IMG/VR virus record: IMGVR_UViG_3300017743_005089
Coordinates: 36,971-100,970 of that record
Length of the DNA stretch: 64,000 nucleotides
From: a virus
Direction: 5' to 3' (one strand)
Part shown: positions 10,159 to 53,216 of the stretch, piece after piece
Layout: each line of letters opens with the position of its first letter
Position numbering within the stretch: the first letter of the stretch is position 1
Notes under the pieces: model-generated
Databases searched by the model: none
What the model was told of the DNA's origin: nothing
Seen by the model: only the letters and a program-made list of their open reading frames with translations
Program-made: the position numbers and the translations under genes

Positions 10159-10224
10159 ATAATTATTACTATTAAACCCCTTGATTATACTAATGTCGAA
10201 TTCCTAGACAAGCCAAATTGGTAA
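10155..10224 (+). pseudogene. Recombination scar: start of one gene fused to the end of another
   Basis: The first 19 nt of the fucosyltransferase-like gene at 6521 (start codon onward) recur exactly at 10155, but the frame stops after MNNYYY. The remaining bases read, in another frame, as a gene tail (IKPLDYTNVEFLDKPNW, then TAA at 10222). This looks like what remains after deletion of most of one or two genes between the flanking cassettes. Confidence 0.5.
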
Positions 10225-10225
10225 T

Positions 10226-10972: not shown

Positions 10973-11652
10973 ATAGAAAAATAATAGCAGCATTAGTTTC
11001 TGTAAATTATTCTGATTTCCTGGAATTAGTTTTACCATTTAACACTAAAATATTTGACGCTATATATGTTATCACCGCAAAAGAAGATAAAAAATGTATA
11101 GATATATGTTCAAAATACGATAATGTAAATTGCTTTATAGTTGAAAATCATATTGTAAAAAAACACGGCAACTTTAATAAAGGGGCAATCTTTAATAAAT
11201 TTTTCGATTTTTTAAATGATCGAAATTTTAATGATCTAATCTGCTTAACTGATTCTGATATCATTTTTCCACCTGAGTTTAAGTCTTTATTATGTAATCT
11301 AGAAGACCAAAACTTATACTCGCTGTCGAGGGCTTTCTGCCAAAACGAAAATCAATTCAATAGATATTCAGAGCATATTAAGTCAGGCAAATCTCATAAT
11401 ACAGGGATCGATAGAAGGGCTAGTCCAAATCTAGCTGGAATCGGATATATGCAGCTTTTTAAATTTCGAAAAGATATTCGAATGTCTGAAGATTTTGGTC
11501 ATGCTGGAAAATCAGACCACCTTTTTGTCTCCGAAAACTTTAAGCGAAAAGGTGGTGAATGCATTAATTTGAAAGAAGGCCAGTACTGCGTTCATTTAGG
11601 GGCAACAGGCACAAACTGGAAGGGAAGGCGCAGCAGAAAATGGAAAATTTAA
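10960..11652 (+). CDS. GT-A fold glycosyltransferase-like protein
   Basis: 230 residues. The alternating strand/helix start (KIIAALVSVNYSDFLEL) and a DSDI metal site in DLICLTDSDIIFPPEF (about 87-102) indicate a small GT-A enzyme. A later FKRKGGECINL and a basic C-terminus are unassigned. It lies in the island operon and overlaps the next gene by 13 nt. The family is not certain. Confidence 0.5.
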   Translation: MASLDRKIIAALVSVNYSDFLELVLPFNTKIFDAIYVITAKEDKKCIDICSKYDNVNCFIVENHIVKKHGNFNKGAIFNKFFDFLNDRNFNDLICLTDSDIIFPPEFKSLLCNLEDQNLYSLSRAFCQNENQFNRYSEHIKSGKSHNTGIDRRASPNLAGIGYMQLFKFRKDIRMSEDFGHAGKSDHLFVSENFKRKGGECINLKEGQYCVHLGATGTNWKGRRSRKWKI

Positions 11653-12113
11653 TATCACATCTTGAGGGCCCCAATAAACATATTATTAATTTAATAAAAC
11701 TCAATGATGGGAAGGTTGTCAATTCAACAAGTAAATGGTTAAGTGATCGTTGGTTTTTACGAGAAACAAACTTTGAAAAAAACCTAACATGTGTCGAAAT
11801 TAGCCCATTTAAGAGCTCAAAAGATTCGAATGTTTTCGTTGGTAAGAAATACTTAAACCACAAAATACACAAATCTTTCCCCAAAACTCTTTTGAATATT
11901 GATTTTTTGTCAATACTTGGTCCCGATATAGCCTTAGAAACTCTATGTAAAATAAATTTTACAAAACAAAAGATTAAATATTTTTGTATAGCCATCAACC
12001 CAGTAAAAACAAAAGATTTTAAACAAAACAAAAAAGATATAGAATTATTTATGAAGGATAAGGCTAAATTTGTAAAACAAAATAGAACAGAGCTTTTGTA
12101 TAGTGTAATATAA
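11640..12113 (+). CDS. Unknown protein, possibly a trimmed methyltransferase-like fold
   Basis: 157 residues, soluble and basic. LLNIDFLSILGPDIALETL, then KIKYFCIAINPVK, resembles the late strands of FkbM- or class I-type methyltransferases, but no SAM-binding glycine motif is visible. It may therefore be a remnant or something else. It shares 13 nt with the previous gene and ends inside a GTGTAATATAAT promoter-like motif. Confidence 0.35.
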   Translation: MENLISHLEGPNKHIINLIKLNDGKVVNSTSKWLSDRWFLRETNFEKNLTCVEISPFKSSKDSNVFVGKKYLNHKIHKSFPKTLLNIDFLSILGPDIALETLCKINFTKQKIKYFCIAINPVKTKDFKQNKKDIELFMKDKAKFVKQNRTELLYSVI

Positions 12114-12114
12114 T
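12103..12114 (+). promoter_or_regulatory. GTGTAATATAAT promoter-like motif before the GHKL gene
   Basis: GTGTAATATAAT lies 4 nt before the ATG at 12119 and overlaps the end of the preceding ORF. The same 12 bases with the same 4-nt gap recur at 23113. TATAAT at 12109-12114 is a consensus -10. No -35 is seen. Transcription from it would be essentially leaderless. Confidence 0.5.
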
Positions 12115-12118
12115 TACT

Positions 12119-13819
12119 ATGAACAATATACAAATAAAAACAGGGGCAAATTTAAGCCGCCTACTTCAATCTACAGTAAATATTCCTCAAGCTTTTACGG
12201 AGTTAGTTAAAAATTCCATACAAAATTTTTCTACATTTTGTCGCATTGATTTCAATAGCTCAAACGTAGTCATAGTTGACGACGGGCAAGGATTTGATCA
12301 TGAAAAAGACGAAAATGGCATGAATGGATTTGAGAAGTACTTTGTTTTTGGAAATTCATACGATTTAACTGGCGGCCAAGGAGTTAAACTTGGTCAAATG
12401 GGCATAGGCGGGAAGCTTGCAAACGATAAACTTTCCCATGAAACAGATATACATTGGACTATTGAAACAAAAAACAAACACGGCAAGTGCTTTCTTGTTG
12501 AGTATAAGCCTTCTGGCACTGAATTTCTAAATGAGTATTCGCCTTCCTTAACTGAAATTACCGAAGATGATTGTTCTATTGAAACTAAATCTGGAACTAA
12601 AATTACTATAGTTACATTAAAAGAAAATATACAAAAAGATGGCTGGCCATCTGGCGCAATCAAAGGAGAGCTCTGTACATTTTTTGGCTTCCTATTGCCT
12701 CAATTGGAAAAAGAAGGCAAGAAGTTTAATATCCACCTAAATGGTGAAAGTTTAGATTTTTCTTACAAACTCCCAGGGTCTAACATTCCAATTATTAGAC
12801 GCACGTTCAATTACGATTATTACGGAGAAATAAAAACAGGAAATATTGAGTTTAGATTATCTTTGATATACAACCGTGGCATAATTAAAAATCATCCTTT
12901 AAAAAACATTGACATTATATCAAAAGTTAAGATTTGCCCATTTTATTTATCAGATCAAGACATGCTTGAATCAACCTTAAGATGGATGGAAGATAAAAAT
13001 GGTGAAGAAATTGAATTTAAAGATAAAATTTACAACGTATTCAATCAATTGATTGGTTTTATATCTTGCGATGAGTTATCAGAAGTTATGGATAACACAG
13101 GTATGCCCGCTAAAGACTTATCTCACCATGGCCTGCGAAATGACCATCCTATTACTATTCCGTTTTACAACAGAGTATACAAGGTTATAGTCGAATGGAT
13201 AGTTGAATATATAAAGTTAAATCAAGAAGAAAAAATGAATATACTTGACGCCTTAGCTAATGAAATCTCTTCAATGTTGGCTGAATATTTTGAAGACGAG
13301 GATTTCTCTGACTTATGGGACGATGAAGAAGAAGAGGAAGATGATGACGAAATCATCGAAGAAACCCCAGAAGAAGAAGAGCGTAGAGAATTAGAAAAAT
13401 TTGCTGAATATGCTATCGAAAAAGAATGGAATTTTGAACCAGAGCCCGAAGAGGAGGAAGAGGAGCCTAAACCCGAAAATAATATTCCGCCTCTTTGGAA
13501 TAAATACAAAAATCAAAAGCCAAAACAATCCAAAAGACTAAGGTATAGGATTATTGATTTCGGAGAAGAACAGAAAAAATTAATGTCTAAGGTTGATGAT
13601 ACGTCTGACTTTACTATTTTAATTAATAATAGCAATCCAAAATTCCAAAGATTTTATAAAGAAAACTCACCTTTTCTTTTATCACTGCATATATCTGAAA
13701 TGTTAATCAGGGAAATTTCTATGTACAGAAACCCACTAGCTAGACCCTCAGATATAGATGAAAGCATTAGTGATTTTTATGAAAATAAGTATTCTCAAGT
13801 AAAAGAAAAAAGTGAATAG
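12119..13819 (+). CDS. GHKL-type ATPase (Hsp90/MutL/MORC-like)
   Basis: 566 residues. The Bergerat fold is clear: N-box FTELVKNSIQN (about 26-36), G1 box VDDGQGF (about 52-58), G2 box GQMGIGGKLA (about 92-101) and an SGTKITIV strand (about 157-164). It most resembles HATPase_c_3/MORC proteins rather than histidine kinases, as there is no kinase dimerisation domain. Residues about 394-460 are extremely acidic (runs of Glu/Asp), followed by a short C-terminal domain. MORC-like ATPases act as DNA clamps or in defence. It is embedded among glycosyltransferases behind its own promoter motif, so its link to them is unclear. Confidence 0.7.
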   Translation: MNNIQIKTGANLSRLLQSTVNIPQAFTELVKNSIQNFSTFCRIDFNSSNVVIVDDGQGFDHEKDENGMNGFEKYFVFGNSYDLTGGQGVKLGQMGIGGKLANDKLSHETDIHWTIETKNKHGKCFLVEYKPSGTEFLNEYSPSLTEITEDDCSIETKSGTKITIVTLKENIQKDGWPSGAIKGELCTFFGFLLPQLEKEGKKFNIHLNGESLDFSYKLPGSNIPIIRRTFNYDYYGEIKTGNIEFRLSLIYNRGIIKNHPLKNIDIISKVKICPFYLSDQDMLESTLRWMEDKNGEEIEFKDKIYNVFNQLIGFISCDELSEVMDNTGMPAKDLSHHGLRNDHPITIPFYNRVYKVIVEWIVEYIKLNQEEKMNILDALANEISSMLAEYFEDEDFSDLWDDEEEEEDDDEIIEETPEEEERRELEKFAEYAIEKEWNFEPEPEEEEEEPKPENNIPPLWNKYKNQKPKQSKRLRYRIIDFGEEQKKLMSKVDDTSDFTILINNSNPKFQRFYKENSPFLLSLHISEMLIREISMYRNPLARPSDIDESISDFYENKYSQVKEKSE

Positions 13820-14738
13820 AGTTATTGGTAATCCTGAAAACTTTGATTTGTCTTGTGAAGAAGATCGATTTAGGTTTGGAAAAGTTGTCATAGAGAAACA
13901 AAACGGACAACTATTAAATCATTATTACGATCACTCGCCCTGGAAGTTTAGCGCAAAAAATTCAAAAGCAGTTAGTTTTATCAAGCAAATAGAAAGAGCT
14001 GATACGTCTCTTTGTTTTCCAGATTTTGAACCAATTAAAATTTATTTTATTGATTTCCCGCCAAAAGCTCAAATCATTCATGAATCAAAAGAAGCTATTT
14101 TATTCCAATCATATATAGACAAACATGAGCCAGAATGCCCACCGAATCTAAAACTTCATCCTGATTTTATTTGCTGTCCTGATTTTACTTTCTGGGATTG
14201 GTGTGGAATGAAGTATGATCAATATTTTCCTAAGGTTCAAAACGCAGGAAAATTAAAACCAACTTCTCAAAAAATGTTTTGGCGTGGTACAAAATATCCC
14301 AAGCTTCGTGGTCCATTGGTGAATCTCAGCGAAAAATATCCAGACTTAATTGACGCTCAATTCTCAAAGCCTAATAAAAATGATGCTAATTTTATATCCC
14401 TGGAAGATGCTGTTGCTGGTTATTCTTATTTTATTGACCTACAAGCTTCTGGATGGAGTCCAAGAGTTAAATATTTTCTTCAATCACATCGTTTGACTTT
14501 CTTACAAGAACGCTTTCACAAAGCTTATTATGAAAAGTATCTAGTTCCAATGGAGCATTATATTCCAATCAAAAAAGATCTTTCTGATCTTGTGGAAAAA
14601 ATTAATTGGGCAAACGATAACCCTGAACACGTTAAAGAGATTATTGATAATGCTTTTGACTTTAGTTTGACTCATTTTTCTATTGATGCTGTAAATAAAA
14701 AATGGCTTGAAGTAATTAAGGCTTCTCAAAATGCATGA
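13812..14738 (+). CDS. Glycosyltransferase, GT90 (CAP10/LPS-modifying)
   Basis: 308 residues. GT90 hallmarks appear in order: KMFWRGTKYPKLRGPL (about 155-170), DLQASGWSPRVKYFLQSHRL (about 213-232, the donor-binding segment), then FHKAYYEKYLVPMEHYIPIK and a WANDNPE tail. Family members include cryptococcal CAP10 xylosyltransferase, POGLUT and LPS-modifying enzymes using UDP-sugars. It lacks the usual signal peptide, so it is cytoplasmic here. It overlaps both neighbours by 8 nt. Confidence 0.8.
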   Translation: MNRVIGNPENFDLSCEEDRFRFGKVVIEKQNGQLLNHYYDHSPWKFSAKNSKAVSFIKQIERADTSLCFPDFEPIKIYFIDFPPKAQIIHESKEAILFQSYIDKHEPECPPNLKLHPDFICCPDFTFWDWCGMKYDQYFPKVQNAGKLKPTSQKMFWRGTKYPKLRGPLVNLSEKYPDLIDAQFSKPNKNDANFISLEDAVAGYSYFIDLQASGWSPRVKYFLQSHRLTFLQERFHKAYYEKYLVPMEHYIPIKKDLSDLVEKINWANDNPEHVKEIIDNAFDFSLTHFSIDAVNKKWLEVIKASQNA

Positions 14739-15390
14739 TTTATACATATTAACTACGGCAATCGATAGGCCTGATTTACATAATCAGACATTACCACCAT
14801 TTTTTGACATACTTCAAAAACAAGGCATTAATTATAAATGGTTTATTAATTTAGACTCTCCATTTAAAAAAACACAAGAAGCTGTAGATAATTTCAAAAA
14901 CTTTACTTTAGGTACTCAAGATTTACATATATCAGACAAGGCTTGTTTTTATTCAGCAGCAAAACATGTGATCACCTCGGCTTACAAGGAACTCCAAAAC
15001 TTGGATGGTTATATTATGTGGCTTGAAGATGACTGGGACTTACTTATTCCATTTAATATGAGAGAATTAATTGACGGTAATTATGAATACATTGGTTTTC
15101 ACTTTCATCACTTTTTTGAGTTTTCATTTAACCCGACTATATGGAGTAAAGATTTCTTTGTTAAAAATGTATACGAACCCTTTGCAGCCTCAGAAGAGTC
15201 CATTGATCCAGAGCAACTACTCATTAATCACCATAAACAAACGAGATCTAAAAACCCCAATCACTTAAAAAATGTGAATCGAATTAATTTCAATGGAGTA
15301 TTTGAAGACGCTGGGAGAAAATGGGGGCAACAATATAATTTAAAAAAATGGAACAAAAACAAAGTAGGAGGAAGTGTTAGTTATGCCTAA
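14731..15390 (+). CDS. Glycosyltransferase-like protein, GT-A fold
   Basis: 219 residues. It starts DLYILTTAIDRPDLHNQTL and has an acidic metal site in GYIMWLEDDWDLL (about 91-103), both typical of small GT-A enzymes that handle nucleotide sugars. The C-terminus is basic. The family is not identified. It ends 8 nt inside the next gene, in the middle of the continuous operon. Confidence 0.5.
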   Translation: MHDLYILTTAIDRPDLHNQTLPPFFDILQKQGINYKWFINLDSPFKKTQEAVDNFKNFTLGTQDLHISDKACFYSAAKHVITSAYKELQNLDGYIMWLEDDWDLLIPFNMRELIDGNYEYIGFHFHHFFEFSFNPTIWSKDFFVKNVYEPFAASEESIDPEQLLINHHKQTRSKNPNHLKNVNRINFNGVFEDAGRKWGQQYNLKKWNKNKVGGSVSYA

Positions 15391-16114
15391 AGCCTCCATA
15401 ATATTATCGTCCCATAATAACTTATCCGAACTTGAGTTAAGTATTGAAAGCTTAAAATACCAAACAGAAAAAGATTTCGAAATCATTATAGCGGATGATG
15501 GATCAACGGATGGCACTATAGAATATTTAGAAGAGCAAGGCGTAAAATATTTTAGCCGCCCAAATGAAGGGTATAGATTAGCCTACATATGGAATCGTGG
15601 CGCAGAATTAGCATCTGGAGATAGATTTATCTTTGGTAACTCAGATATTATATCTCATCCCAAAAGAATCGAAGAGCATTTATTGTGCGGTGATAATCTA
15701 GTTGCTGGAATTTATCCATCAATACCCATTGATTATGTGCATACCATAACCAAACACAAGATAAAATATGATTTTTGGTCGATAGATTTAATAGCTACAG
15801 AAGACAGAAGAAAAGATTATATTTCTGGCCTAAAAAAGCCTCAGTTAAATCATGGTAAAAAAATACCACCTCGATACATGTATGGAGGGAACTGGTCTTG
15901 CCCTGCTAATGTCTTTAAAAAACTTGGTGGACTTGACGAAGGATTTAAGGGCTGGGGTGGAGAAGATTTTGATTTAGCTAGAAGAGCTCAGCTAGATGAT
16001 CGCGACGTGATACTAAACATCAACTGCATGGGCTACCACCTCGACCATGATACGGTCAATAGGGATGAAACTAGATCACTCGGCAAAGGTTACTTTAATA
16101 AAAAATGGTCATAA
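15383..16114 (+). CDS. Family 2 glycosyltransferase with galactosyltransferase C-terminal module
   Basis: The ATG at 15383 is preferred over the GTG at 15374 because AGGAGG (15367-15372) lies 10 nt before it, one of the few good Shine-Dalgarno sites in the window. The 243-residue enzyme has a classic GT2 start (ASIILSSHNN, ADDGSTDGT), a metal motif near GNSDII, and a Glyco_transf_7C-type acceptor module, WSCPANVFKKLGGLDEGFKG then GGEDFDLARRAQ. This is chondroitin-polymerase- or beta-4-GalT-like chemistry. Donor unknown. Confidence 0.85.
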   Translation: MPKASIILSSHNNLSELELSIESLKYQTEKDFEIIIADDGSTDGTIEYLEEQGVKYFSRPNEGYRLAYIWNRGAELASGDRFIFGNSDIISHPKRIEEHLLCGDNLVAGIYPSIPIDYVHTITKHKIKYDFWSIDLIATEDRRKDYISGLKKPQLNHGKKIPPRYMYGGNWSCPANVFKKLGGLDEGFKGWGGEDFDLARRAQLDDRDVILNINCMGYHLDHDTVNRDETRSLGKGYFNKKWS

Positions 16115-16131
16115 CACTAACATAAAATATA

Positions 16132-16932
16132 ATGAAACCTCAAATAATAGATGCATTTATGCTGAACAACGAATTGGACGCTCTCAACTTCAGGCTCCAT
16201 GAACTAAACAAATATGTAGACAAGTTCGTAATCTATGAGAACTCATGGACTCATAGCGGCAATAAGAAACCTCTCCATTTTGAAGAAAACAAGCAAATGT
16301 TTTCTGAATTTTCTAATAAGATAGTTCACATAAAAAGCAATACACGAGGGAAAGACAACTGGAAAAGGGAGTTTGCTCAAAGATATGAAGTTTTGCTTAA
16401 AGGTGTATCTTCTCTTAATTTAAATGATAACGATATTGTTTCACTTTGTGACTTAGATGAAGTCATAGACCCTAAATTAATCTTAAACTACAAAGAAGAA
16501 TTGCCCAGCAATAGCCCGCTTTTAGTTTGCCCTCATTGGTTCAATGTTTCTTGGGATTGCTATCTTGGGGCATGGAATCATCACAGCATTGTATTTTCTT
16601 ATTGGGGGGAACTGAAAAAAAGATTAGGCCACTGGAGGGGTACGCATTGCGGATGGCGATGGGACCACCCTAAATTCCCCAAGCCAATCCAAAGAAAAGA
16701 ACTTTCTGGCTGGCATGCATCTTGGTTTATGGATCCTGAAGATTTAATTGTGAAGCTTAAAAGCTTTGCTCATAATGGCGAAGATTGGGTTTCGAAGATA
16801 TTAAAAGATATTAATATAATTGACAGCAGAATTAAAGAGGGCAAAGATGTGACTGGAAGATTTAACATTAAAAAGTTTGATTCCCCTTATCCTAGATATA
16901 AGGATTTAATTAATTATGGAATTAAAAAATAA
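16132..16932 (+). CDS. Glycosyltransferase, GT17 (N-acetylglucosaminyltransferase III-like)
   Basis: 266 residues. IIDAFMLNNELDALNFRLHE, then YVDKFVIYENSWTHSG, is the GT17 signature. A DLDEVID metal site (about 107-113) and a late GWHASWF segment also fit. Animal GT17 adds bisecting GlcNAc to N-glycans, and bacterial members are uncharacterised. Soluble. It overlaps the next gene by 17 nt. Confidence 0.8.
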   Translation: MKPQIIDAFMLNNELDALNFRLHELNKYVDKFVIYENSWTHSGNKKPLHFEENKQMFSEFSNKIVHIKSNTRGKDNWKREFAQRYEVLLKGVSSLNLNDNDIVSLCDLDEVIDPKLILNYKEELPSNSPLLVCPHWFNVSWDCYLGAWNHHSIVFSYWGELKKRLGHWRGTHCGWRWDHPKFPKPIQRKELSGWHASWFMDPEDLIVKLKSFAHNGEDWVSKILKDINIIDSRIKEGKDVTGRFNIKKFDSPYPRYKDLINYGIKK

Positions 16933-17656
16933 AACTGCTTCTATTTGTGGCTGTGCGAAAAATATAGCAGAACACTTACCTTTATCAATTTCTAAAATTG
17001 AAATGATTTCTTCTGTTTTTAAAGAAGTAAAAATTTTTATTTTCGAGAACGATTCAACAGATGATACGCTGGTAATACTTAATCAATGGGCAAGCGATAA
17101 TAAATCAGTAGAAGTTATATCGGAAAACAACATCCCACTTAAAGCCACTAAAGGGTGGTATAAAAGAGTTGAAACACTGTCTTATGCGCGCAATAAGGTT
17201 TTAGAAGCCACAAAAAAATATGAACCCGATTATTATATTATGATTGATCTGGACGAAGTTATTAGCAAGCTGAGTCTAGATGGTTTTTTAAGTTCTTTTA
17301 ATCTTGAGGTTGACTGGGACATGGTTGGAGCAAATCAAACAGGCCACTATTACGACTTGTGGGTCTTAAGAACCTTTGATGATTGGATGAATTATGACTG
17401 TTGGGAAGAATGCGTACCAAAGCATGGTTATGAAAAATGCATAGAATCAAAAAAACGAAACATTCCAATTGACTCAGAACCCATAGAGGTTTTATCCTGC
17501 TTTGGAGGCCTTGGTATCTACAAGTTCAGCCATGTAAAAAATTGCAACTATACTAAATCAGGAAAAAGAACAGTTGAACACACATATTTACACAACCAAA
17601 TGAGAGAAAAAAATAATTCTCGTTTTTTTATCAACCCCAAGATGATAGGATACTAA
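16916..17656 (+). CDS. Glycosyltransferase, CAP59/CMT1 (GT69)-like
   Basis: 246 residues. IFIFENDSTDDTLVIL, a RVETLSYARNKVLEA helix and the metal site YIMIDLDEVI (about 103-112) match the cryptococcal mannosyltransferase (CAP59_mtransfer) group. Family members add alpha-mannose from GDP-mannose, consistent with the GDP-sugar enzymes encoded here. No membrane anchor. The stop overlaps the next start by 1 nt. Confidence 0.65.
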   Translation: MELKNKTASICGCAKNIAEHLPLSISKIEMISSVFKEVKIFIFENDSTDDTLVILNQWASDNKSVEVISENNIPLKATKGWYKRVETLSYARNKVLEATKKYEPDYYIMIDLDEVISKLSLDGFLSSFNLEVDWDMVGANQTGHYYDLWVLRTFDDWMNYDCWEECVPKHGYEKCIESKKRNIPIDSEPIEVLSCFGGLGIYKFSHVKNCNYTKSGKRTVEHTYLHNQMREKNNSRFFINPKMIGY

Positions 17657-18303
17657 TGAAAAAAATTTTTAAAGTTTTTGTGTGTTGTCATAAATATATC
17701 CACAGGGTTAAAGATATAAAAGCTCGTGTCAACAAATGGAAGCTTGGTGATTACTTAATTTTTGTCGGCGGCCAAGAGCAAAAACAGTTGGAAGAAAATG
17801 TTATTCAGTTAAAATGCCGCGATCTATACGAAGATCTGCCAGAAAAAATGTTTACTATTTATAGGTATTTAGCAGGTAACGGATACGCTGATAAATATGA
17901 CTATTTCTGGAAAATAGATGATGATATTGATTTCATTAGGTGGAACGCTCATAGAGAAACACAACTCTCAGATTGTTTGGTGAATGATTACTGCGGATTA
18001 AAAGTCTTAGACAAGCCAGGAAAAAGAGGGTGGCATATCGGTAGAGTGCAAAAAGATTCGCCATGGTATAACAAAAAATACAATGGAAAATATGTTGATT
18101 GGGCTGACGGAGGATCTACTTATTTCTTAAGTTCTAATTCTATAAATAAATGGAAGAATTTTTATGAACTTTCAGATATAAGATTACACCATATATACGA
18201 AGACCTTGCAGTAGGTTTGTTTTTAAAAAAATGCAATATATTACCCATGCAAATAGACCCTTGGAAGGATAAACCTATACTGAGGTTTAATATAAATAAA
18301 TGA
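17656..18303 (+). CDS. Glycosyltransferase, GT31-like (beta-3-galactosyltransferase type)
   Basis: 215 residues. The DDD-type metal site YFWKIDDDIDF (about 84-94), WADGGSTYFLSS (about 153-164) and IYEDLAVGLFLKK (about 178-190) reproduce the GT31 order: DxD, then the GGxxY acceptor loop, then the EDVxxG box. Eukaryotic members build beta-1,3-Gal/GlcNAc linkages. Here it is soluble and in an operon, overlapping the next gene by 4 nt. Confidence 0.75.
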   Translation: MKKIFKVFVCCHKYIHRVKDIKARVNKWKLGDYLIFVGGQEQKQLEENVIQLKCRDLYEDLPEKMFTIYRYLAGNGYADKYDYFWKIDDDIDFIRWNAHRETQLSDCLVNDYCGLKVLDKPGKRGWHIGRVQKDSPWYNKKYNGKYVDWADGGSTYFLSSNSINKWKNFYELSDIRLHHIYEDLAVGLFLKKCNILPMQIDPWKDKPILRFNINK

Positions 18304-19073
18304 AAGTGTTTAGCTCCAGCGACCAAGGTCTTTTTGGTAGTTCTTTATTTTGGGTATTGAACAGGCTGCCTTATTTTTATGATAAAAAGATGTACCCTAA
18401 CTGGGAAATACTAAACATTAACCATGGCGACCCTAATAATAATGATAATATAGTTCCTGAAATTATATATCCTATAAAATTATCAGATTTACCTTCAAAA
18501 AAAGTAAACTTAAACACGGTACCAACTCATAATTTTACAGACTTCAATCAAGCTAATTTTTATTTTAATCATTTTTTTCAATTTAATTTTGAAATAATTC
18601 AACTAGCAGACAGCATTTCTAAAAATTTTAAAAACACTCTTGGTATACATTTTAGAGGCAATGACAAAACAAAAACTAATCACGAATCTATCTGCATAAA
18701 TGAAAATCAGTTCTTTAAAAAAATAGAAAAGTTTGCTGAATCAAATAAGTTTGATAGTATTTTCTTATTGTCTGACGACATACAAATTAAAAACAATATA
18801 AAAAATCTATTGTTTGAAAAATTTAAATGCGACATCATTCTTAATGACTTCCCTTTTACTTTCCATATGGATCAAAAAAATATGGATAATAGACTTGAAT
18901 TAACCAAGCAATCTGTTGCAGAAATGCTCGCCTTATCAAAATGCAAATCAGTTCTAAAAAGCCACTCCGCCTTTTCAAGCTGGGCAAAGATAATCAACCC
19001 TGAACTCGAAATGTATCGAGTGAATGAATGCAAAAATAATTGGTTTCCTGATTACTATTTACCTGAGCTGTAA
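18300..19073 (+). CDS. GT-B fucosyltransferase-like protein
   Basis: 257 residues. LGIHFRGNDKTK (about 115-126) fits the GDP-sugar-binding HxRxxD motif. IFLLSDD and EMLALSKCKSVLKSHSAFSS (about 212-231) give the late motifs of the O-/alpha-fucosyltransferase superfamily. It is distinct from the NodZ-like gene at 6521. GDP-fucose or a related GDP-sugar is the likely donor. The last base of its stop codon is the first base of the next start. Confidence 0.5.
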   Translation: MKVFSSSDQGLFGSSLFWVLNRLPYFYDKKMYPNWEILNINHGDPNNNDNIVPEIIYPIKLSDLPSKKVNLNTVPTHNFTDFNQANFYFNHFFQFNFEIIQLADSISKNFKNTLGIHFRGNDKTKTNHESICINENQFFKKIEKFAESNKFDSIFLLSDDIQIKNNIKNLLFEKFKCDIILNDFPFTFHMDQKNMDNRLELTKQSVAEMLALSKCKSVLKSHSAFSSWAKIINPELEMYRVNECKNNWFPDYYLPEL

Positions 19074-19774
19074 TGAAAGCTCTTTGTTTTACTTTTGACC
19101 GCAATATGCCAATAATGGAATATGTTTTATATACATATTTTAAGTGCTGGCCAGATAATCCTTTTGTTTTTTACGTTCCGTGGAATGAAGTTAAACCCAG
19201 CTACTTAGTTGATAAATATGGGTCCAATAAAATAAAATTGTTACAAACAGATAGCGCGGTAAAGCCTACAATCCGAACTCTACTTTCGGCAGTTGAGCCC
19301 AATGAGTTTATATGGTGGGCTCAGGACGATAAATACATAATTGATTTTAAAAATAAACAAATTATACAAGACTTACACCAATACAATTCTCAAAATATTG
19401 GCGGATTTATGTTTACTAAAAATTCTGATGCCGAAAAAAGTCACCTTAAAACAAAAAATAATTTTGGTAAGCACGAATTGATTAAGAAAAAAAATCATCA
19501 CCAAATATTTCAGCCACAATTAATTAAAAAGGAGGTTATAGAATATCTTTACCTTCACGATTCCTTAAATGAGCATTACCCCTTACATAATCTTTATAAA
19601 ATTATGAGCTTTAAACCCATTAAAGACTTATACTCCACACAAGTTAACCACATAAGTATCGCTGAATCACTTGACCAAGGTAGAATAACATCAAATTTAG
19701 TGTATCATATGAATGAGGATAATTTTGAAATACCAGATTTACCTCGATGCAACAAAACAATGATTTATTATTAA
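19073..19774 (+). CDS. Probable glycosyltransferase of unassigned family
   Basis: 233 residues. It begins ALCFTFDRNMPIMEYVLYTY, a typical donor-binding strand-helix, and contains IWWAQDDKYIIDF (about 85-97), an acidic DD site in the place of a DxD. The C-terminus carries HISIAESLDQGRITSNLVYH. It is classed as a glycosyltransferase mainly by these features and by its neighbours. No family fits well. Confidence 0.4.
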   Translation: MKALCFTFDRNMPIMEYVLYTYFKCWPDNPFVFYVPWNEVKPSYLVDKYGSNKIKLLQTDSAVKPTIRTLLSAVEPNEFIWWAQDDKYIIDFKNKQIIQDLHQYNSQNIGGFMFTKNSDAEKSHLKTKNNFGKHELIKKKNHHQIFQPQLIKKEVIEYLYLHDSLNEHYPLHNLYKIMSFKPIKDLYSTQVNHISIAESLDQGRITSNLVYHMNEDNFEIPDLPRCNKTMIYY

Positions 19775-19775
19775 A

Positions 19776-20306
19776 ATGGGCTTGGGAAACAAAAAAACTT
19801 TACAATTTATAAAACATGATGCAGTATGCGTTGAGGTTGGAGTCTGGAAAGGTGATTTATCTAGACAGATAGCCCAGCTCCCAATCTCAAAACTTTACTT
19901 AGTAGATCCATGGAAAACAATAAATGACGTTGAAGGCAGGCTACACAATAGAGAGCAAAAAGAACTTGATGACATATATAACATTGTAAGAAGAAGATTT
20001 TTCTTTAATAAAAAAATTCAAATACTTCGGAAATTTTCTACAGAGGCTATGTTGGATATACAAGATAATTCTGTTGACTGGATATATGTTGACGGCAACC
20101 ACAGTTATGAATACGTTAAAGAAGATCTTGCGGGCTGGTGGCCAAAGTTAAAAAGTGGTGGATTTTTATGTGGAGACGATTACGTCAAGCAAGATGACTT
20201 ACAGTTCGGAATAATTCAGGCAGTAGATGAGTTCTCTGAAGAATACAAAGATCAAATCAACCACTCAGAACTTATAAAAGATCAATTTGCCTTCCAAAAA
20301 AAGTAA
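19776..20306 (+). CDS. Class I SAM-dependent methyltransferase (Methyltransf_24 type)
   Basis: 176 residues. SAM motif I is CVEVGVWKGDLS (about 18-29), the acidic strand LYLVDPW follows, and VDWIYVDGNHSYEYV, then KLKSGGFLCGDDY, give the later motifs, where DGNHSY is typical of sugar O-methyltransferases of this group. It is a clear paralogue of the gene at 20909, with a sulfotransferase between them. Probably methylates a glycan hydroxyl. Confidence 0.75.
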   Translation: MGLGNKKTLQFIKHDAVCVEVGVWKGDLSRQIAQLPISKLYLVDPWKTINDVEGRLHNREQKELDDIYNIVRRRFFFNKKIQILRKFSTEAMLDIQDNSVDWIYVDGNHSYEYVKEDLAGWWPKLKSGGFLCGDDYVKQDDLQFGIIQAVDEFSEEYKDQINHSELIKDQFAFQKK

Positions 20307-20315
20307 GATTTCAAA

Positions 20316-20906
20316 ATGGTTTCTGCTGATTTAAAATGTGTTTTTATACACATACCTAAATGTGCTGGCAGCTCTATAAACCAAGATTTAAAACTTCAGT
20401 CTATTGGTTTCTCAGGTCATTCCCCAGCCTCCTGTCATTTTGATTATCTTGGTGATTATTTTTCATTCACTTTTATTAGAAATCCCTATGATAGGGTGGT
20501 TTCAGCTTATAAATATTTTCAAAAATTAACCCCTGGCCACAGGTGGTACAAAAGAAATAGCATTATAGCAGATGTTGCATCAAAAATGGACTTTAATGAG
20601 TTCGCCAACCATATCGTAGATTTCCAAAAACTAATGGTAAGAGAAGAAGGTTCTTTTGAGTCTGGAATACATTTTCAACCTTTTGATTACTTCTTAGATA
20701 AAGAGATTAATTATATAGGTAGATTTGAAGATATTCAAAAAGATTATAGTTACATTAGATCAAGGCTAAATTTGCCTGTTAAAATTTTACAAAAAACAAA
20801 TTCCACAAATAATAATCATTACCAGAAAATATACGGTGGAGATGCAGAAAGAATAGTGTATAATATATATAGCCAAGACATTAAAAAATATAAATATCAA
20901 TTTTAA
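20316..20906 (+). CDS. Sulfotransferase (PAPS-dependent, family 2-like)
   Basis: 196 residues with HIPKCAGS (12-19) as the 5'-phosphosulfate loop and RNPYDRVVS (55-63) as the 3'-phosphate site. FTFIRNPYDR closely matches the other island sulfotransferases, but the first residues (MVSADLKCVFIHIPK) differ, so it is an older or separate branch. It sits between two paralogous methyltransferases, suggesting sulfation and methylation of the same unit. Confidence 0.8.
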   Translation: MVSADLKCVFIHIPKCAGSSINQDLKLQSIGFSGHSPASCHFDYLGDYFSFTFIRNPYDRVVSAYKYFQKLTPGHRWYKRNSIIADVASKMDFNEFANHIVDFQKLMVREEGSFESGIHFQPFDYFLDKEINYIGRFEDIQKDYSYIRSRLNLPVKILQKTNSTNNNHYQKIYGGDAERIVYNIYSQDIKKYKYQF

Positions 20907-20908
20907 AT

Positions 20909-21478
20909 ATGGAACCTTTACCTTACGAATTTGAACTAGATGATTCAAGATTATCTTTACTTGAAAAAATTAAACCTGGAGACGTTTGTGTAGAGATTGG
21001 AACCTTTAAAGGTGATTTCGCCGACTTTATCTTAAAAATGGAACCATCAAAGCTTCATTTGATTGATCCCTGGATTAGCATTATGGATGTTCCAGCTAGA
21101 TGGCATGCAATTCCTCAAGATCAAATGGATGAAATAAAATCTCAAGTTTACTCTAGATTTGCCTCAGATGCCAGGGTACAAATAATTGAAAAATATTCTA
21201 TAGATGGCCTGGATGATTTTGACGATGACTCTATCGACTGGATATACCTTGACGCAAATCATTCTTATTCTTTTATAGAACAGGATTTAACAAATTGGTG
21301 GGATAAGCTAAAGCCAGGAGGTTTTTTATGTGGGAATGCATATCAAGATGACGAGGCGCAAATTAAGTTGCTTGATTTTGGGATAATACCTGCTGTAGAT
21401 TCTTTTCTTGAAGATCTCTTTGAAGAGATTGCAAATTTTGAAACTTTTAAATACCAATTTATCTTAACAAAAAAATGA
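20909..21478 (+). CDS. Class I SAM-dependent methyltransferase (paralogue)
   Basis: 189 residues. Motif I is CVEIGTFKGDFA, the acidic strand is LHLIDPW, and later motifs are IDWIYLDANHSYSFI and KLKPGGFLCGNAY. It aligns end to end with the methyltransferase at 19776. The GDDY that follows the GGFLC strand there is GNAY here, which may change metal or substrate use. It overlaps the epimerase gene by 4 nt. Confidence 0.75.
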   Translation: MEPLPYEFELDDSRLSLLEKIKPGDVCVEIGTFKGDFADFILKMEPSKLHLIDPWISIMDVPARWHAIPQDQMDEIKSQVYSRFASDARVQIIEKYSIDGLDDFDDDSIDWIYLDANHSYSFIEQDLTNWWDKLKPGGFLCGNAYQDDEAQIKLLDFGIIPAVDSFLEDLFEEIANFETFKYQFILTKK

Positions 21479-22467
21479 AAATATTAGTTGGTGGCGCAGG
21501 CGGTTTTATCGCTGGATACTTAGTTAAAGATTTATTGGGCCAAGGACATGAAGTTGTTGCTGCTGATATTAAACCTTTTGATCAATGGTATCAGACTTTC
21601 CCAGAAGCAGAAAATCATGCTGACTGCAATTTACAACAAAAAGAAAACTGCTATAATTTAAGTGTTGGTGTTGACAGAACCTACAACCTTGCCTGCAATA
21701 TGGGAGGCATGGGTTTTGTAGAAAACAATCAGGCGCTTTGCATGGAGAATGTTTTAATTCAAACTCACATAATGATGGCTGCACGAGACAATGGCGTCAA
21801 AGAAGTTCTTTATAGTTCAACAGCCTGTGTCTATCCAGCTGCAATTCAGTCTGAAATCAAAGATGAATCATCTCAGGCTTTAAAAGAATCCGATGTATTT
21901 CCCGCTAATCCAGATGATGGTTATGGTTGGGAAAAATTGTTCAGTGAATTAATTACTTATTATTACGGAAAAGATTTTGAGATTGATTCTCGAACTTGCC
22001 GTTATCACAATGTATATGGGCCCTTTGGCACATGGCGAGGAGGTCGTGAAAAAGCTCCTGCCGCAATCTGCCGTAAAGTTATTGAAGCAAAAATGAGCGG
22101 TAATCATGAGATTGAAATTTGGGGTGACGGAGAGCAGACCCGTTCATTTATGTTTATTGATGATTGTATTACTGGCATGGAATTGATGTGGGAAAAAGGA
22201 GACTCTCGACCATTAAATCTTGGTAGTGATCGCATGGTATCTATCAATCAATTAGTTGATATTATTGAAGGTATAGGAGGATTAAAATTGAAGAGAAACT
22301 ACAATCTTGATGCACCCCAAGGAGTTCGCGGCAGAAATAGCGATAATACCATGATAAAAGAGGTTTTAGACTGGGCTCCATCAATCTCTTTAGAAGAAGG
22401 TTTAGAAAAAACATATGCATGGATCTATAATCAAATGCAAAACTGCAGTGAATCTTCAGGGTATTAA
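21475..22467 (+). CDS. gme: GDP-mannose 3,5-epimerase-like NAD-dependent epimerase
   Basis: 330 residues, extended SDR fold. The NAD loop is GGAGGFIAG (6-14). Markers of GDP-mannose 3,5-epimerase follow: NMGGMGFVENN (75-85), SSTACVYP with C118, the YxxxK pair Y150/K154, and GPFGTWRGGREKAPAAICRK with K193. These match the plant enzyme's catalytic Cys, Tyr, Lys and second Lys. It would convert GDP-mannose to GDP-L-galactose or GDP-L-gulose in the cytoplasm. It closes the island operon and likely supplies donor sugars to it. Confidence 0.85.
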   Translation: MKILVGGAGGFIAGYLVKDLLGQGHEVVAADIKPFDQWYQTFPEAENHADCNLQQKENCYNLSVGVDRTYNLACNMGGMGFVENNQALCMENVLIQTHIMMAARDNGVKEVLYSSTACVYPAAIQSEIKDESSQALKESDVFPANPDDGYGWEKLFSELITYYYGKDFEIDSRTCRYHNVYGPFGTWRGGREKAPAAICRKVIEAKMSGNHEIEIWGDGEQTRSFMFIDDCITGMELMWEKGDSRPLNLGSDRMVSINQLVDIIEGIGGLKLKRNYNLDAPQGVRGRNSDNTMIKEVLDWAPSISLEEGLEKTYAWIYNQMQNCSESSGY

Positions 22468-36133: not shown

Positions 36134-38542
36134 ATGGAAAACTTTCCCAATTTCACACCGAGTTGCCAAAAAATAATATCAGATTCTAAACTTTTAGCTG
36201 AGGCATGGAATCATGAAGAAGTAAATTGCGGCCACCTGCTGGTCGCTATAATGTCTTCCTCTTTGACATTTGTTAATGATTTAATGGTAGGCTTTAATGT
36301 TCCTGTCGACTCTTTTATAGAATACATAGAAGATTTTTATGCACTGGAACCTTCGAACAAAAAAGCTAAAGATTTTTATTACGGAGAAGAGGTTAAACAC
36401 TTGCTCTCTGAGGCCCATGAATTTGCAATCGAATTGGGCAACGATTATATATCTGCGGAGCATATATTTTTTATATACCTAAATAACTCTAATGGCCCCT
36501 GTTATCACTTCTTAAAGTTGCAAAAAGTTTCTCCATCAAAAGTGATGGAAGCCTTTTTGATAATATTTAAAAATCAACAAGTTTATAGTAGGAATGAATC
36601 TGGTTTAGTTCAGCCAATCGAGGAAGAGGCGGCTGGCGTTACCTCGCAATCGGGCAATGACTCCAATAGCATGCTTGAGTCTTTCTGTACAAATCTTCAC
36701 GATTTGAATGCAAAAGGTTCTTTACCTAAAGTTATAGGTAAAGATTTTGAAATGGATAGAATGTGTGAAATTTTAGGCAGAAAAATCAAAAACAATCCCC
36801 TTCTCATAGGTGATCCTGGCGTTGGTAAAACCGCAATCGTGGAAGGTTTAGTTCAAAAAATAGATGAAAGCAAGGCTCCCCCATTCTTATTAGGCAAAAA
36901 GATTTACTCAGTAGATTTGGCTTCAATGATTGCTGGTACAAAGTACAGGGGTCAATTTGAGAAAAGGCTAAAACTTTTGCTGAAAGAATGCTCCGAACTA
37001 GGGAGTATAATTTTATTTATAGATGAAGCTCATACTATTGTGGGAGCTGGAAACGCTGAAGGAACAATGGATGCATCAAATATACTGAAGCCTGCTTTGG
37101 CAAGAGGGGATCTTACAGTAATAGGTGCTACAACTTTCCCTGAATACAAAAAGAATATTGAAAAAGATATAGCTCTTAGTAGGAGATTCGAAAACATTGC
37201 AGTGGAAGAGCCCTCAACTTTAGAGTGCTACAAAATACTCAAAGGTATTAAATCCTCCTATGAAAAATTTCACGGAGTATCTTACGACAACTATATTCTC
37301 AAAAAAATAGTTTCTCTATGTGATGACTACCTGCCTCAAAGAAAGTTTCCCGACAAAGCTATAGATATAATGGACGAAGTTGGAGCTAAATTAAAAATTA
37401 AAAACTCCATGCCCACAAAAGAGATGCAAATAACTGAGGATAAAATATATAACCTCAGCGCGCAAGCTGTTGGGACAAAAAGAGAAGATGACTTGATCGA
37501 TAAATATGTTTCACTTTCTAATGATTGGGAAAAATCTTCAAGAAAAAAAGTTAGTGAAAATGATGTAATAGATTGTCTTTCCGTAAAGGCAAAGCTACCC
37601 AAAGATAACTTCCATCAAGACAAAGATGATAAGTCTTTAAGTCTTGGAAGAAAATTAAACAGAGATGTAATAAATCAAAAAGACGCCGTATCAAATATAC
37701 ATAAGTCGATATTAAGGTTTAAGCTCGGCCTTAAAGATTTAAACAAACCTATAGGCTCTTTCTTGTGCCTAGGTGCTAGCGGGGTTGGTAAAACCTGGAC
37801 AGCTAAAATGCTAGCCAAACATTATTTTGGATCAGAAAAAAACATTATAAGGTTTGATATGTCCGAGTACTCTGACAAGGTCTCTTCTGCAAAGTTAACT
37901 GGAGCATCCCCAGGGTATATAGGCTACGAAGAGGGGGGCGTTTTAATAGAAGCAATAAAAAAGAAACCTCATTGCGTCCTGCTTTTTGATGAAATAGAAA
38001 AATCCCATCCAGAAGTTCAACAACTTTTACTACAAATATTAGAAGAAGGAGAGATTCAAGATAATATAGGTACCACAGTTTACTTCAAAGACACTATTGT
38101 AATACTTACTAGTAATATTGGTTCAGAAATTACAACCAAAAGTTCTCTTGGTTTTTCCCCAAACCCAGAGTCGAATGATTCTAAAATCTACGAAGTTGCA
38201 AAAAAAATACTTAGTCCAGAATTAGTAAACAGATTGGATTCGGTTATAGTCTTTAATCACTTAGATCAAAAAGATTTATTTAAGATATTTAAATCCGAAA
38301 TAAGAAAACTTTGCTCCAAATTAAAAAAGAAAAATGTATCAATTAACATATCTGATGATGCAGCTAATTTTCTTTGCGAAGTAGCTTCGGTAGAAAAAAT
38401 GGGGGCAAGACCATTAAAAAGGTTAATAAAGTCGGAGATAGAAGACGTAATTGTTGAGCATTACTTTAAAAAGAAACAAGACAAGCAGGTTAATTTTAAT
38501 TTTTGTTTAGATGAAGATTCTATAAGTCATTCTATTTATTAA
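36134..38542 (+). CDS. ClpC/ClpA-like AAA+ unfoldase
   Basis: 802 residues. A Clp N-domain with two repeats spans about 1-145. AAA1 has Walker A GDPGVGKT (226-233) and [17 protein letters not shown]2 has Walker A GASGVGKT (547-554) and [15 protein letters not shown]. The middle region is short, as in ClpC/ClpA, not the long coiled coil of ClpB. An LGF tripeptide at 672-674 lies where ClpA/ClpC carry the IGL/VGF loop that docks on ClpP. It could direct host ClpP to chosen targets. No phage ClpP is seen here. Confidence 0.8.
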
Positions 38543-50849: not shown

Positions 50850-51941
50850 ATGAATACAAAATACGGACTGATCTGCAATTCAAAAATCTTAAAAGAGGAA
50901 GACCCTTCTAAAGATTTTATTGGCTTAACGAGAAAAGACTTTGGTAAAATATCTTCGGAAGAAGGTGACCAAAAAGCTCTTCAGAAATTAGGTCAAGACG
51001 TGATGCATAATTTAAACCTAACGGTTGAGATTATTGATCATTGCAGGTCAGTCGGTATTGATCATTATAGATTAAACACTTCTATTTTTGGAATTGTTTC
51101 TGATCCTGGGTTTGACATTGATTTTAAAGACCTTCCGAATGTTCCCGCTTTAACCGAAGCGATAAAAAACATTGGCAGAACCTCTATAACAAAAGGCGTG
51201 TCATTATCTATTCAACCTGATAAGTTTTGCAAGCTTATAGACGAAGAAGAGTCTGTCGTAGAAAAATCTGTTAAAGAATTGAATTTCTACTCTTGGTTTC
51301 TTGACACTCTCGGGGGTCAACCAAATATATCTTGCCCTATAACCCTTCACTTAAATTCTCAACCAGAAAAAGACGACCATGAATCTTACTGTAATTTTGC
51401 GGATAGATTTTTTGAAAATTTCCAAACTCTTGATTCTGGTACTAGAGATCGATTGGTTTTAAAGAACGCTGATCATGGTTCTTGGAGCGCGTTTAACTTA
51501 TTCAAATACATGCATGTTTATTGTTTTGAAGAACATGATTACGGATTCCCCTTGTCTTACAACAATTTGTTTGATGCTCTTAACCCCTCCAAGATTGACG
51601 ATTCAATCGTAGAGCAGCAGATTAATGTTGGAGCATTTAATGAAACTTGGAAAGGTGTTGTTCCTGTTTTTACTTGGAGCGAATCTAAAAGCGCCGAAAA
51701 CAGAAGGGCTCACGCGGAAGAGCTTTCTGGACCAATTAATGATTTCGGCTACCAAATAAAATGGGAGGTAGATGTAACAGGTAAAGACGTTTCCATTATA
51801 AAACTTTTTGACTCCGATGAAAAATCTAGAATTTCTCAAGAAGAATTAGTTAAGCTAACTAGAGGTAGATACCAAAGAGTTACCAATAATTATAATGCTT
51901 TGTATGAAGCCGCAAGAAAATCAAAAGATATTTCTGAATAA
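50850..51941 (+). CDS. UV-damage endonuclease (UVDE/UvsE)-like protein with altered metal site
   Basis: 363 residues. The TIM-barrel UVDE layout is recognisable: KYGLICNSKILKE at the start, EIIDHCRSVGIDHYRLNTSIF (UvsE has HGI.FYR.SS.LFP), VEKSVKELNFYSWFLDTLGG, RDRLVLKNADHGSWSAF (UvsE has RLVLENDD), and SESKSAENRRAHAEEL. Several metal ligands appear changed: HPGQF is QPDKF, LENDD is LKNAD, and the FDxHHH strand lacks His. It may be a binding or structural relative rather than an active nicking enzyme. Confidence 0.65.
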   Translation: MNTKYGLICNSKILKEEDPSKDFIGLTRKDFGKISSEEGDQKALQKLGQDVMHNLNLTVEIIDHCRSVGIDHYRLNTSIFGIVSDPGFDIDFKDLPNVPALTEAIKNIGRTSITKGVSLSIQPDKFCKLIDEEESVVEKSVKELNFYSWFLDTLGGQPNISCPITLHLNSQPEKDDHESYCNFADRFFENFQTLDSGTRDRLVLKNADHGSWSAFNLFKYMHVYCFEEHDYGFPLSYNNLFDALNPSKIDDSIVEQQINVGAFNETWKGVVPVFTWSESKSAENRRAHAEELSGPINDFGYQIKWEVDVTGKDVSIIKLFDSDEKSRISQEELVKLTRGRYQRVTNNYNALYEAARKSKDISE

Positions 51942-51963: not shown

Positions 51964-52332
51964 GGGCGTGTACTGGATTCGATTTAATTTGGATTAGTGC
52001 ACTGCAAGCGGGAGATTGTGTTCGGCTCCCAAAAAAAACACAACTTTTGTAACTGGCAATAAAGCTCGTGCAAAAACTTTTGGTTTCCGCAAGGCTTCCA
52101 AGGTTGCTTTAGCAGCTTAAGCGCTGCTACCTCTCCCTTCTCGACGCAGATAAAGAAGACGAGGGGTCATCTATCTGCAAGACAGAAAAGGTTTACTTGT
52201 TAATAATCTGTAAATAATTGAAACAAGTAGTTAGATGTTAATATCAATAACTATAAAAAAAATTAACTAAGCTTGTAGATGTGTATTTTTGAAGATTTAA
52301 AGACGGCGGTTCAACTCCGCCCACGTCCACCA
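51964..52332 (+). ncRNA. ssrA: tmRNA
   Basis: A complete transfer-messenger RNA of 369 nt. The acceptor stem is GGGCGTG (51964-51970) with CACGTCC (52322-52328), including the G3-U70 alanine identity pair. Discriminator A and an encoded CCA end it. The T arm is GGCGG/CCGCC with TTCAACT. Pseudoknot 1 is seen as GGGAG/CTCCC interlaced with TTGTG/CACAA. The tag probably starts with GGC at 52055, 11 nt after the pseudoknot, and runs 21 codons (GNKARAKTFG...SKVALAA) to the TAA at 52118. It rescues stalled ribosomes and marks proteins for proteolysis. Confidence 0.93.
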
Positions 52333-52344
52333 TTTTAAATATTA

Positions 52345-52374
52345 AGCCCCCTATTTCTAGGGGGCTTTTCTTTT
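52345..52374 (+). terminator. Rho-independent terminator of the tmRNA
   Basis: AGCCCCCT and AGGGGGCT form an 8-bp stem with a 6-nt loop (52345-52366), followed by TTTTCTTTT. It lies 12 nt after the tmRNA CCA and between convergent genes. The reverse side has only a weak T-rich tail. Confidence 0.9.
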
Positions 52375-52409: not shown

Positions 52410-53216
52410 TTATTCGGGGCGCTTTCCTAGTGGTTTTCCATCTTGTCCGATTTCACCCGCTCTAATTTTTGTGGCGGATACTTCTTGTAATTCTTTACTT
52501 AGTTCAATCATCTCTATGTTGTACCCAACCCCTCTTCCGTAAAAAATATCCATAATATTGGGGAGCTCGACAACTTTAATTTTATTCCCGAATTCAATGC
52601 AAGCAGATTCTATTTCTTTCTTAACTTGCTCGAAATTATATGGATTCTTATCGTCAATTCCGCCGACATCTCTTAGCGCTATACAGCATTGACCTGTTCT
52701 TCTTACAGCTTCTGCCACAAGATTTTTGTGACCAACATGAAAAGGTTGGTACCTACCAATTAAAAGCGCCGTTGGAGCCTGATTGTCCCAAGCTTCGGTT
52801 TTATTCAATTCCTTTAAGGTTTTCTCTACCCATTCTTCTGGCGTTCCAGTTGTAAGCCTTAAATCATAATTCATAGGTCTTTGAAACATCTTATTAGTAT
52901 CTTCGTATCTACCCTCCATTATACGGTCCACCCATATAACAAAGTCTGCATTAAAAGCGGCTCTAGTTTCTTGAGTCGGGCATACAAAGTCAGCTATAAC
53001 ATAAGATCCCCCCATTTTTGCCCAATCACATAGTTTCCCCATCCTTGTGGCATGAGCAAGCCTATCTTCGGCTGAAAAGCCTAGCTCGGAGTATATGTCC
53101 TGCCTTACGGCATCTGCATTGAACCATGCTGCGTTTAACTTAGATACTAATTTTTCAGCTAATGTAGTTTTTCCTGATCCAGGAAGACCCATTATGAGAA
53201 TCTTTCTTTTTGTCAT
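52410..53216 (-). CDS. APS kinase fused to a nucleotidyltransferase
   Basis: 268 residues, the only minus-strand gene. Residues 1-140 are APS-kinase-like: Walker A GLPGSGKT, FNADAVRQDIYSELGFSAED (compare DGDNVRxGLNxDLGFS) and MGGSYVIADFVCPTQETRAAF. The rest is a HxGH nucleotidyltransferase, GRYQPFHVGHKNLV, then SATKIRAG, like NMN adenylyltransferases. PAPS synthetases also join an APS kinase to a HxGH enzyme (ATP sulfurylase). It could make PAPS for the sulfotransferases. Alternatives are an NAD-salvage or polynucleotide enzyme. Confidence 0.7.
   Translation of the reverse strand: MTKRKILIMGLPGSGKTTLAEKLVSKLNAAWFNADAVRQDIYSELGFSAEDRLAHATRMGKLCDWAKMGGSYVIADFVCPTQETRAAFNADFVIWVDRIMEGRYEDTNKMFQRPMNYDLRLTTGTPEEWVEKTLKELNKTEAWDNQAPTALLIGRYQPFHVGHKNLVAEAVRRTGQCCIALRDVGGIDDKNPYNFEQVKKEIESACIEFGNKIKVVELPNIMDIFYGRGVGYNIEMIELSKELQEVSATKIRAGEIGQDGKPLGKRPE

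What the first reader, a model, noticed from the sequence alone, without database searches (positions are those of the whole stretch)
51964..52332. Complete tmRNA with a long basic tag in a phage
All core tmRNA parts are present, including the G3-U70 pair, pseudoknot 1 and encoded CCA. The tag (21 codons by my resume-codon call) is rich in Lys/Arg before the standard ALAA end, unlike the short acidic/polar tags of many bacteria. A phage tmRNA with its own tag could redirect degradation of stalled host or phage products. The ClpC-like ATPase in the window is a possible partner.
Basis: partly seen in the sequence, partly recalled or inferred. Interest (0 to 1): 0.78.

Follow-up and report, generated by a model that had tools for sequence, protein, structure and literature searches.

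The report
Phage tmRNA with long basic tag
A large uncultivated phage carries its own complete tmRNA (the RNA that rescues stalled ribosomes and adds a "destroy me" tag), a known kind of phage gene, but its tag is long and positively charged, and sister phages carry the same RNA with a basic, acidic or near-neutral tag.

Summary
In detail: window 51964-52332 (+) is a full-length one-piece tmRNA (Rfam RF00023, 133 bits, E 6e-52; ARAGORN agrees) with G3-U70, pseudoknot 1, encoded CCA and a 21-residue tag GNKARAKTFGFRKASKVALAA (net +6). It lies in a phage record (IMG/VR, 101 kb). Phage tmRNAs are known (about 2% of isolate genomes), so this is a new member of a known kind. New here: tmRNA recurs across this uncultivated phage group (17 of 50 record fragments; 7 of 8 records of at least 120 kb), with no SmpB found. 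The scaffold is conserved and covaries. The tag is under purifying selection within a class, yet its class switches among sister phages from basic (20-33 aa, up to +12) to acidic (34-41 aa, to -11). A GNKxR tag was not found in 84,980 bacterial and archaeal species. All relatives that could be checked have a ClpC-like unfoldase next to DNA polymerase, with a ClpP-docking-like xGF loop. Tag charge seemed to track ClpC N-domain charge in two sets of phages but failed in a third, so a dedicated partner is not supported. Best reading: phage ribosome rescue using host SmpB and proteases. Side find: TLD-only mini-tmRNAs in four phage sequences.

The parts
51964..52332 (+). complete one-piece tmRNA gene (ssrA), CCA encoded
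   Evidence: ARAGORN; RF00023, 133.3 bits, full length; covariation in 15 sisters
51964..51970 (+). acceptor stem, 5' strand GGGCGUG, with G3 at 51966
   Evidence: sequence; G3-U70 in 15 of 15 sisters
52305..52332 (+). T-arm (52305-52321), acceptor 3' strand CACGUCC (52322-52328, U70 at 52326) and ACCA
   Evidence: sequence; covarying pairs
52010..52043 (+). pseudoknot 1: GGGAG/CUCCC and UUGUGUU/AACACAA
   Evidence: sequence; second stem covaries in sisters
52050..52051 (+). UA at -5/-4 before the resume codon (frame signal)
   Evidence: present in all 18 compared; role from PMC2481249
52055..52120 (+). tag reading frame, 21 codons and stop: GNKARAKTFGFRKASKVALAA
   Evidence: ARAGORN; third-position bias and pN/pS below 1 across sisters
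52344..52367 (+). hairpin with T-rich tail, likely intrinsic terminator of the tmRNA
50850..51941 (+). UvdE-like endonuclease, directly upstream neighbour
   Evidence: Pfam PF03851, 76 bits
33543..36119 (+). DNA polymerase III alpha subunit, marker used to find related phages
   Evidence: Pfam; 51 related loci
36134..38542 (+). ClpC-like AAA+ unfoldase with LGF at the place of the ClpP-docking loop; possible, unproven partner
   Evidence: Pfam; best solved relative ClpC, 535 bits; general in related phages

Best explanation
It is a working phage-encoded tmRNA. Shown: complete anatomy, alanine identity pair G3-U70, conserved frame-setting UA, a tag peptide under purifying selection, and recurrence in related phages. 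Inferred: during infection it is charged by host alanyl-tRNA synthetase, binds host SmpB (none was found in the phages), frees ribosomes stalled on broken mRNAs in the infected cell, and appends the basic tag. The hydrophobic ALAA end is then read as a degron by host ClpXP, or by another unfoldase with host ClpP, possibly the phage's own ClpC. The basic middle part is selected as peptide, but its reader is unknown. The gene or its tag is exchanged or replaced among related phages.
For: Full-length RF00023 hit and ARAGORN call; compensatory changes in 33 of 64 pairs, invariant G3-U70; UA at -5/-4 in 18 of 18; pN/pS 0.17-0.69 within tag classes and third-position bias; 17 of 50 related records, and 7 of 8 of at least 120 kb, hold a tmRNA; terminator after the gene; no SmpB in 51 records while the same search finds it in 10 control bacteria; phage tmRNAs are an established kind.
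Against: No expression, charging or tagging data. The host is unknown. The record and its relatives are fragments, so smpB could lie in missing parts. In E. coli the tag itself is not needed for growth of the test phage, only ribosome release (PMC2481249), which leaves the selected tag unexplained by rescue alone.
Confidence: 0.78

Rival explanations
1. A dedicated phage tagging-and-degradation pathway: the phage's own ClpC, docked on host ClpP, reads the charged phage tag, so phage-tagged products leave the host route.
For: ClpC follows DNA polymerase in 50 of 51 related loci; xGF at the ClpP-loop place in every aligned copy; tag peptide selected within class; tag charge against ClpC N-domain charge negative in the discovery set (rho -0.46, p 0.056) and in a first replication (rho -0.70, one-sided p 0.026).
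Against: A second replication reversed the sign (rho +0.65, n 6); all 33 phages: rho -0.24, p 0.18; tree-corrected p 0.14. ClpC is general in the group whatever the tag. The ALAA end already suits host ClpX.
Confidence: 0.1
2. Ribosome rescue only: the phage needs extra tmRNA to recycle ribosomes; the tag merely has to end in a degron, and its charged part drifts.
For: Tag function is not critical for phage growth in the E. coli assay (PMC2481249); tags differ greatly between close relatives.
Against: pN/pS below 1 and third-position bias within tag classes; charged motifs repeated in the longer basic tags; drift would not readily give two strongly charged, internally conserved classes.
Confidence: 0.3
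3. A captured host tmRNA or an integration-site relic carried by the phage.
For: tmRNA genes are common integration sites (PMC11915505).
Against: No tyrosine integrase in the record; gene complete at both ends; present with maintained structure in many related phages; no genome of 84,980 species has a GNKxR-type tag behind this 5' end, though the pattern matches 34 of the fetched loci.
Confidence: 0.04

Closest known systems
Phage-encoded tmRNAs: mycobacteriophages Bxz1, Cali, Wildcat and others, Bacillus phage G (PMC4131195), huge phages (PMC7162821), 402 of 18,146 phage genomes (PMC9004378)
   Same: complete tmRNA gene in a phage genome with its own tag frame
   Different: no close relative of this sequence or tag among 50,697 phage records; here the tag is long and basic and changes class among related phages. 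I could not compile a full census of known phage tags.
Chromosomal tmRNA of Flavobacteriaceae (possible host family)
   Same: one-piece tmRNA, Gly resume codon, ALAA end
   Different: 9-residue tags GENNYALAA and close variants; 5' end CGGUUUUGA or CUGGUUUUGA instead of CUGGAUUCGA; no basic stretch. The host assignment is only inferred.
Two-piece tmRNA of marine phage Melnitz and relatives (PMC9004378)
   Same: marine phage tmRNA without phage SmpB discussed; proposed rescue or tagging role
   Different: permuted two-piece gene of alphaproteobacterial type, not one-piece

Membership tests
tmRNA (RF00023) | tRNA-like domain with 7-bp acceptor stem, G3-U70, T-arm, CCA | tested here: met
tmRNA (RF00023) | covariance-model score above gathering threshold over full length | tested here: met
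   133.3 bits against 47, model 1-374
tmRNA (RF00023) | tag frame with resume codon after conserved A at -4, hydrophobic end and stop | tested here: met
tmRNA (RF00023) | pseudoknot 1 between acceptor domain and tag | tested here: met
   second stem covaries. Pseudoknots 2-4 not examined one by one
tmRNA (RF00023) | aminoacylation with alanine and SmpB binding | not testable with these tools
   needs biochemistry
Phage-encoded trans-translation | gene lies in a phage genome | tested here: met
   IMG/VR virus record; tail and replication genes; related phages carry it
Phage-encoded trans-translation | own smpB (found in some huge phages) | tested here: not met
   0 of 51 records; records are fragments
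ClpC-type unfoldase as tag partner | Hsp100 with ClpP-docking tripeptide xGF | tested here: met
   all aligned copies; below NCBIfam equivalog cut-offs for ClpA and ClpB; docking not shown
ClpC-type unfoldase as tag partner | tag and ClpC N-domain charges co-vary | tested here: inconclusive
   suggestive in two sets, reversed in the third, not significant overall

The most novel reading that the evidence does not exclude
These phages run their own tag code: a phage tmRNA marks products with a charged tag that a phage ClpC, on host ClpP, reads in preference to host unfoldases, and the code is switched between basic and acidic by exchange of the tag cassette, perhaps to keep a phage's products apart from those of its host or of competing phages.
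Probability: 0.1. Interest if true: 0.85.

Novelty: new member of a known kind. Interest (0 to 1): 0.45.

Why it matters
Phage tmRNAs are known but their use is not. This group gives a natural series: one scaffold with selected basic, near-neutral and acidic tags of 19 to 41 residues in related phages. That makes the question whether a phage cares what its tag says directly testable by swapping tags in vitro. It also shows that ARAGORN alone misses or misframes many such genes, so surveys based on it undercount them.

Tried and rejected
(1) Tag charge against ClpC N-domain charge: seen in 18 phages, written down as a fixed test, replicated in 8, failed in 6 more and not significant overall. 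Rejected as evidence. (2) Host capture or integration relic: no integrase, no bacterial or archaeal genome with the tag. (3) Phage ClpP partner: only two of 50 records hold a ClpP-like gene, below every ClpP cut-off and also similar to head-maturation proteases. (4) Bacteroidota promoter motif: 7 sites against 4.3 expected, no signal. (5) Close isolate relatives: none by DNA or by tag. (7) Mycobacteriophage Bxz1 as a tag yardstick: accession not held; the two SaltySpitoon regions fetched list no tmRNA.

Full report
What is there. Window 51964-52332 (+) is a complete one-piece tmRNA gene. ARAGORN and Rfam agree to the base (RF00023, 133.3 bits, E 6.2e-52). The acceptor stem GGGCGUG/CACGUCC holds the G3-U70 alanine pair, pseudoknot 1 and the T-arm can be read by eye, and CCA is encoded. 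A hairpin with a T-rich tail follows at 52344-52367. The gene starts 22 bases after a UvdE-like gene and faces a minus-strand gene. The tag is GNKARAKTFGFRKASKVALAA, 21 residues, net +6.

Where it is. The window is part of a 100,970-base IMG/VR virus record. The record has minor tail proteins, a central tail fibre J, a UvsX-like recombinase, DnaB-like helicase, primase and DNA polymerase III alpha, no tRNAs, no SmpB, no ClpP and no tyrosine integrase.

Relatives. The DNA polymerase finds 51 related loci in IMG/VR. Of 50 records searched, 17 hold a full tmRNA, and so do 7 of the 8 records of 120 kb or more; the records are fragments, so the true share is probably higher. SmpB was found in none of the 50. 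An alignment of 15 tmRNAs of the group shows conserved ends and core; 33 of 64 consensus pairs have compensatory changes and G3-U70 never varies. The structure is therefore maintained by selection.

The tag. In all 18 tmRNAs compared, U and A stand at -5 and -4 before the resume codon, the positions that set the frame in E. coli (PMC2481249). A further one, L021, has C at -5, a change tolerated in E. coli. The tags fall into classes: basic ones of the form GNKxRVKxFGFK...LALAA, 20-33 residues, net charge about 0 to +12, the longer ones repeating the basic motif; acidic ones GEGYxx(I/V)(E/K)(E/D)L(L/I)EAA(R/T)EEY..., 34-41 residues, net -9 to -11; and a few others. Within classes of equal length pN/pS is 0.17-0.69 and differences favour third codon positions (1230 against 854 and 745), so the peptide is selected. 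Between classes the tag switches: on the DNA polymerase tree each of six acidic phages needs its own change, on the ClpC tree of 33 phages at least 10 changes are needed, well-supported sister pairs differ (L093 +11, L098 -11), and distances of the tmRNA scaffold do not follow those of the polymerase (Mantel rho 0.07, 661 of 2000 permutations as high). The gene or its tag is exchanged or replaced among these phages. ARAGORN missed or misframed many of them.

Is the tag bacterial? A pattern joining the 5' end CUGGAUUCGA to a GNK.R-like tag start finds nothing in 84,980 bacterial and archaeal species, while it matches in 34 of the fetched loci. Tags behind other 5' ends were not covered. The host is unknown. 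Hints: few Shine-Dalgarno sites (15 of 88 genes, 17%, against 13% background) and A-rich leaders, as is known of Bacteroidota; polymerase relatives co-binned with two Flavobacteriaceae assemblies (84% identity in one), a Woesebacteria assembly and one unnamed bacterium. Flavobacteriaceae tmRNAs mostly encode GENNYALAA and close variants, so if that is the host the phage tag differs in length and charge.

ClpC. The ATPase at 36134-38542 is most like ClpC among solved structures (535 bits). It follows the polymerase directly in 50 of 51 relatives; the exception ends there. Every aligned copy has an xGF at the place of the ClpP-docking loop, so docking on host ClpP is plausible but not shown. A link between tag and ClpC was tested. 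In the first 18 phages tag charge and ClpC N-domain charge ran opposite (rho -0.46, p 0.056). I fixed the test in writing. Eight new phages agreed (rho -0.70, one-sided p 0.026; -0.65, p 0.039 after realignment), six further ones did not (rho +0.65), and all 33 give rho -0.24, p 0.18, tree-corrected p 0.14. The claim is not supported.

Mechanism. By established knowledge of trans-translation, a tmRNA with intact tRNA-like domain, frame signal and ALAA end should rescue stalled ribosomes and mark products for ClpXP-type proteolysis, using host alanyl-tRNA synthetase, SmpB and proteases. This is inferred, not shown. Phage tmRNAs are known: ten phages in PMC4131195, huge phages in PMC7162821, 402 of 18,146 genomes in PMC9004378, which also proposes upkeep of the translation machinery or tagging of host proteins. 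This one is a new member of that kind. What goes beyond the literature I read is the series of selected, class-switching, long charged tags on one scaffold.

Side finding. The same searches showed 73-85-base tmRNAs reduced to the tRNA-like domain in four different phage sequences, all above the RF00023 cut-off; one such phage (L118, L130) also has a full tmRNA. Among phages only DS6A was named with this form in the papers read; its mini-form inhibits tmRNA in E. coli (PMC4131195; PMC11915505).

Noticed in passing
L130:1501-1573 (same sequence in L133 and L137), L134:3234-3318 (same in L135, L138), L136:5110-5189, L139:806-887: tmRNAs reduced to the tRNA-like domain, 73-85 bases, with G3-U70 and CCA but no tag, in four different viral sequences; RF00023 56-70 bits. 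Like mycobacteriophage DS6A; possible decoys that titrate SmpB.
   Followed up: partly
IMGVR_UViG_3300009104_001827 (211 kb): L118, L130, L192, L088: One phage of this group carries a full tmRNA (tag ANNIVRFEDFTACGEELALAA), a mini-tmRNA, a ClpC and a ClpP-like protein about 2 kb upstream of its DNA polymerase.
   Followed up: partly
L140:1439-1764 (OR529408.1, Stenotrophomonas phage BUCTxx99, about 98583-98908): Unannotated permuted two-piece tmRNA, tag ANDDVYVVALAA, RF04321 100 bits.
   Followed up: partly
L121, L122, L115, L116, L117, L123, L126; L007, L016, L035, L120: ARAGORN misses the first seven full-length tmRNAs and gives a wrong or shortened tag for the others, judged by the conserved UA and aligned frame.
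   Followed up: yes
L157 (contig C10 of a Woesebacteria assembly, L144's genome): A second tmRNA in this assembly with tag GESYNSNPELLPFEEELAMAA and a scaffold like those of the phage group, probably a co-binned phage.
   Followed up: partly
window 52410-53216 (-): Neighbour facing the tmRNA: a P-loop kinase domain (APS-kinase-like) joined to a nucleotidyltransferase-like domain, far below any curated cut-off of a named enzyme in NCBIfam.
   Followed up: no
window 2640-22467 and L003:3874-13812: A long run of similar-sized genes on one strand; those identified include a sulfotransferase, a sugar epimerase and a protein close to bacterial GDP-mannose dehydratase-like genes, suggesting a phage-borne glycan cluster.
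   Followed up: no
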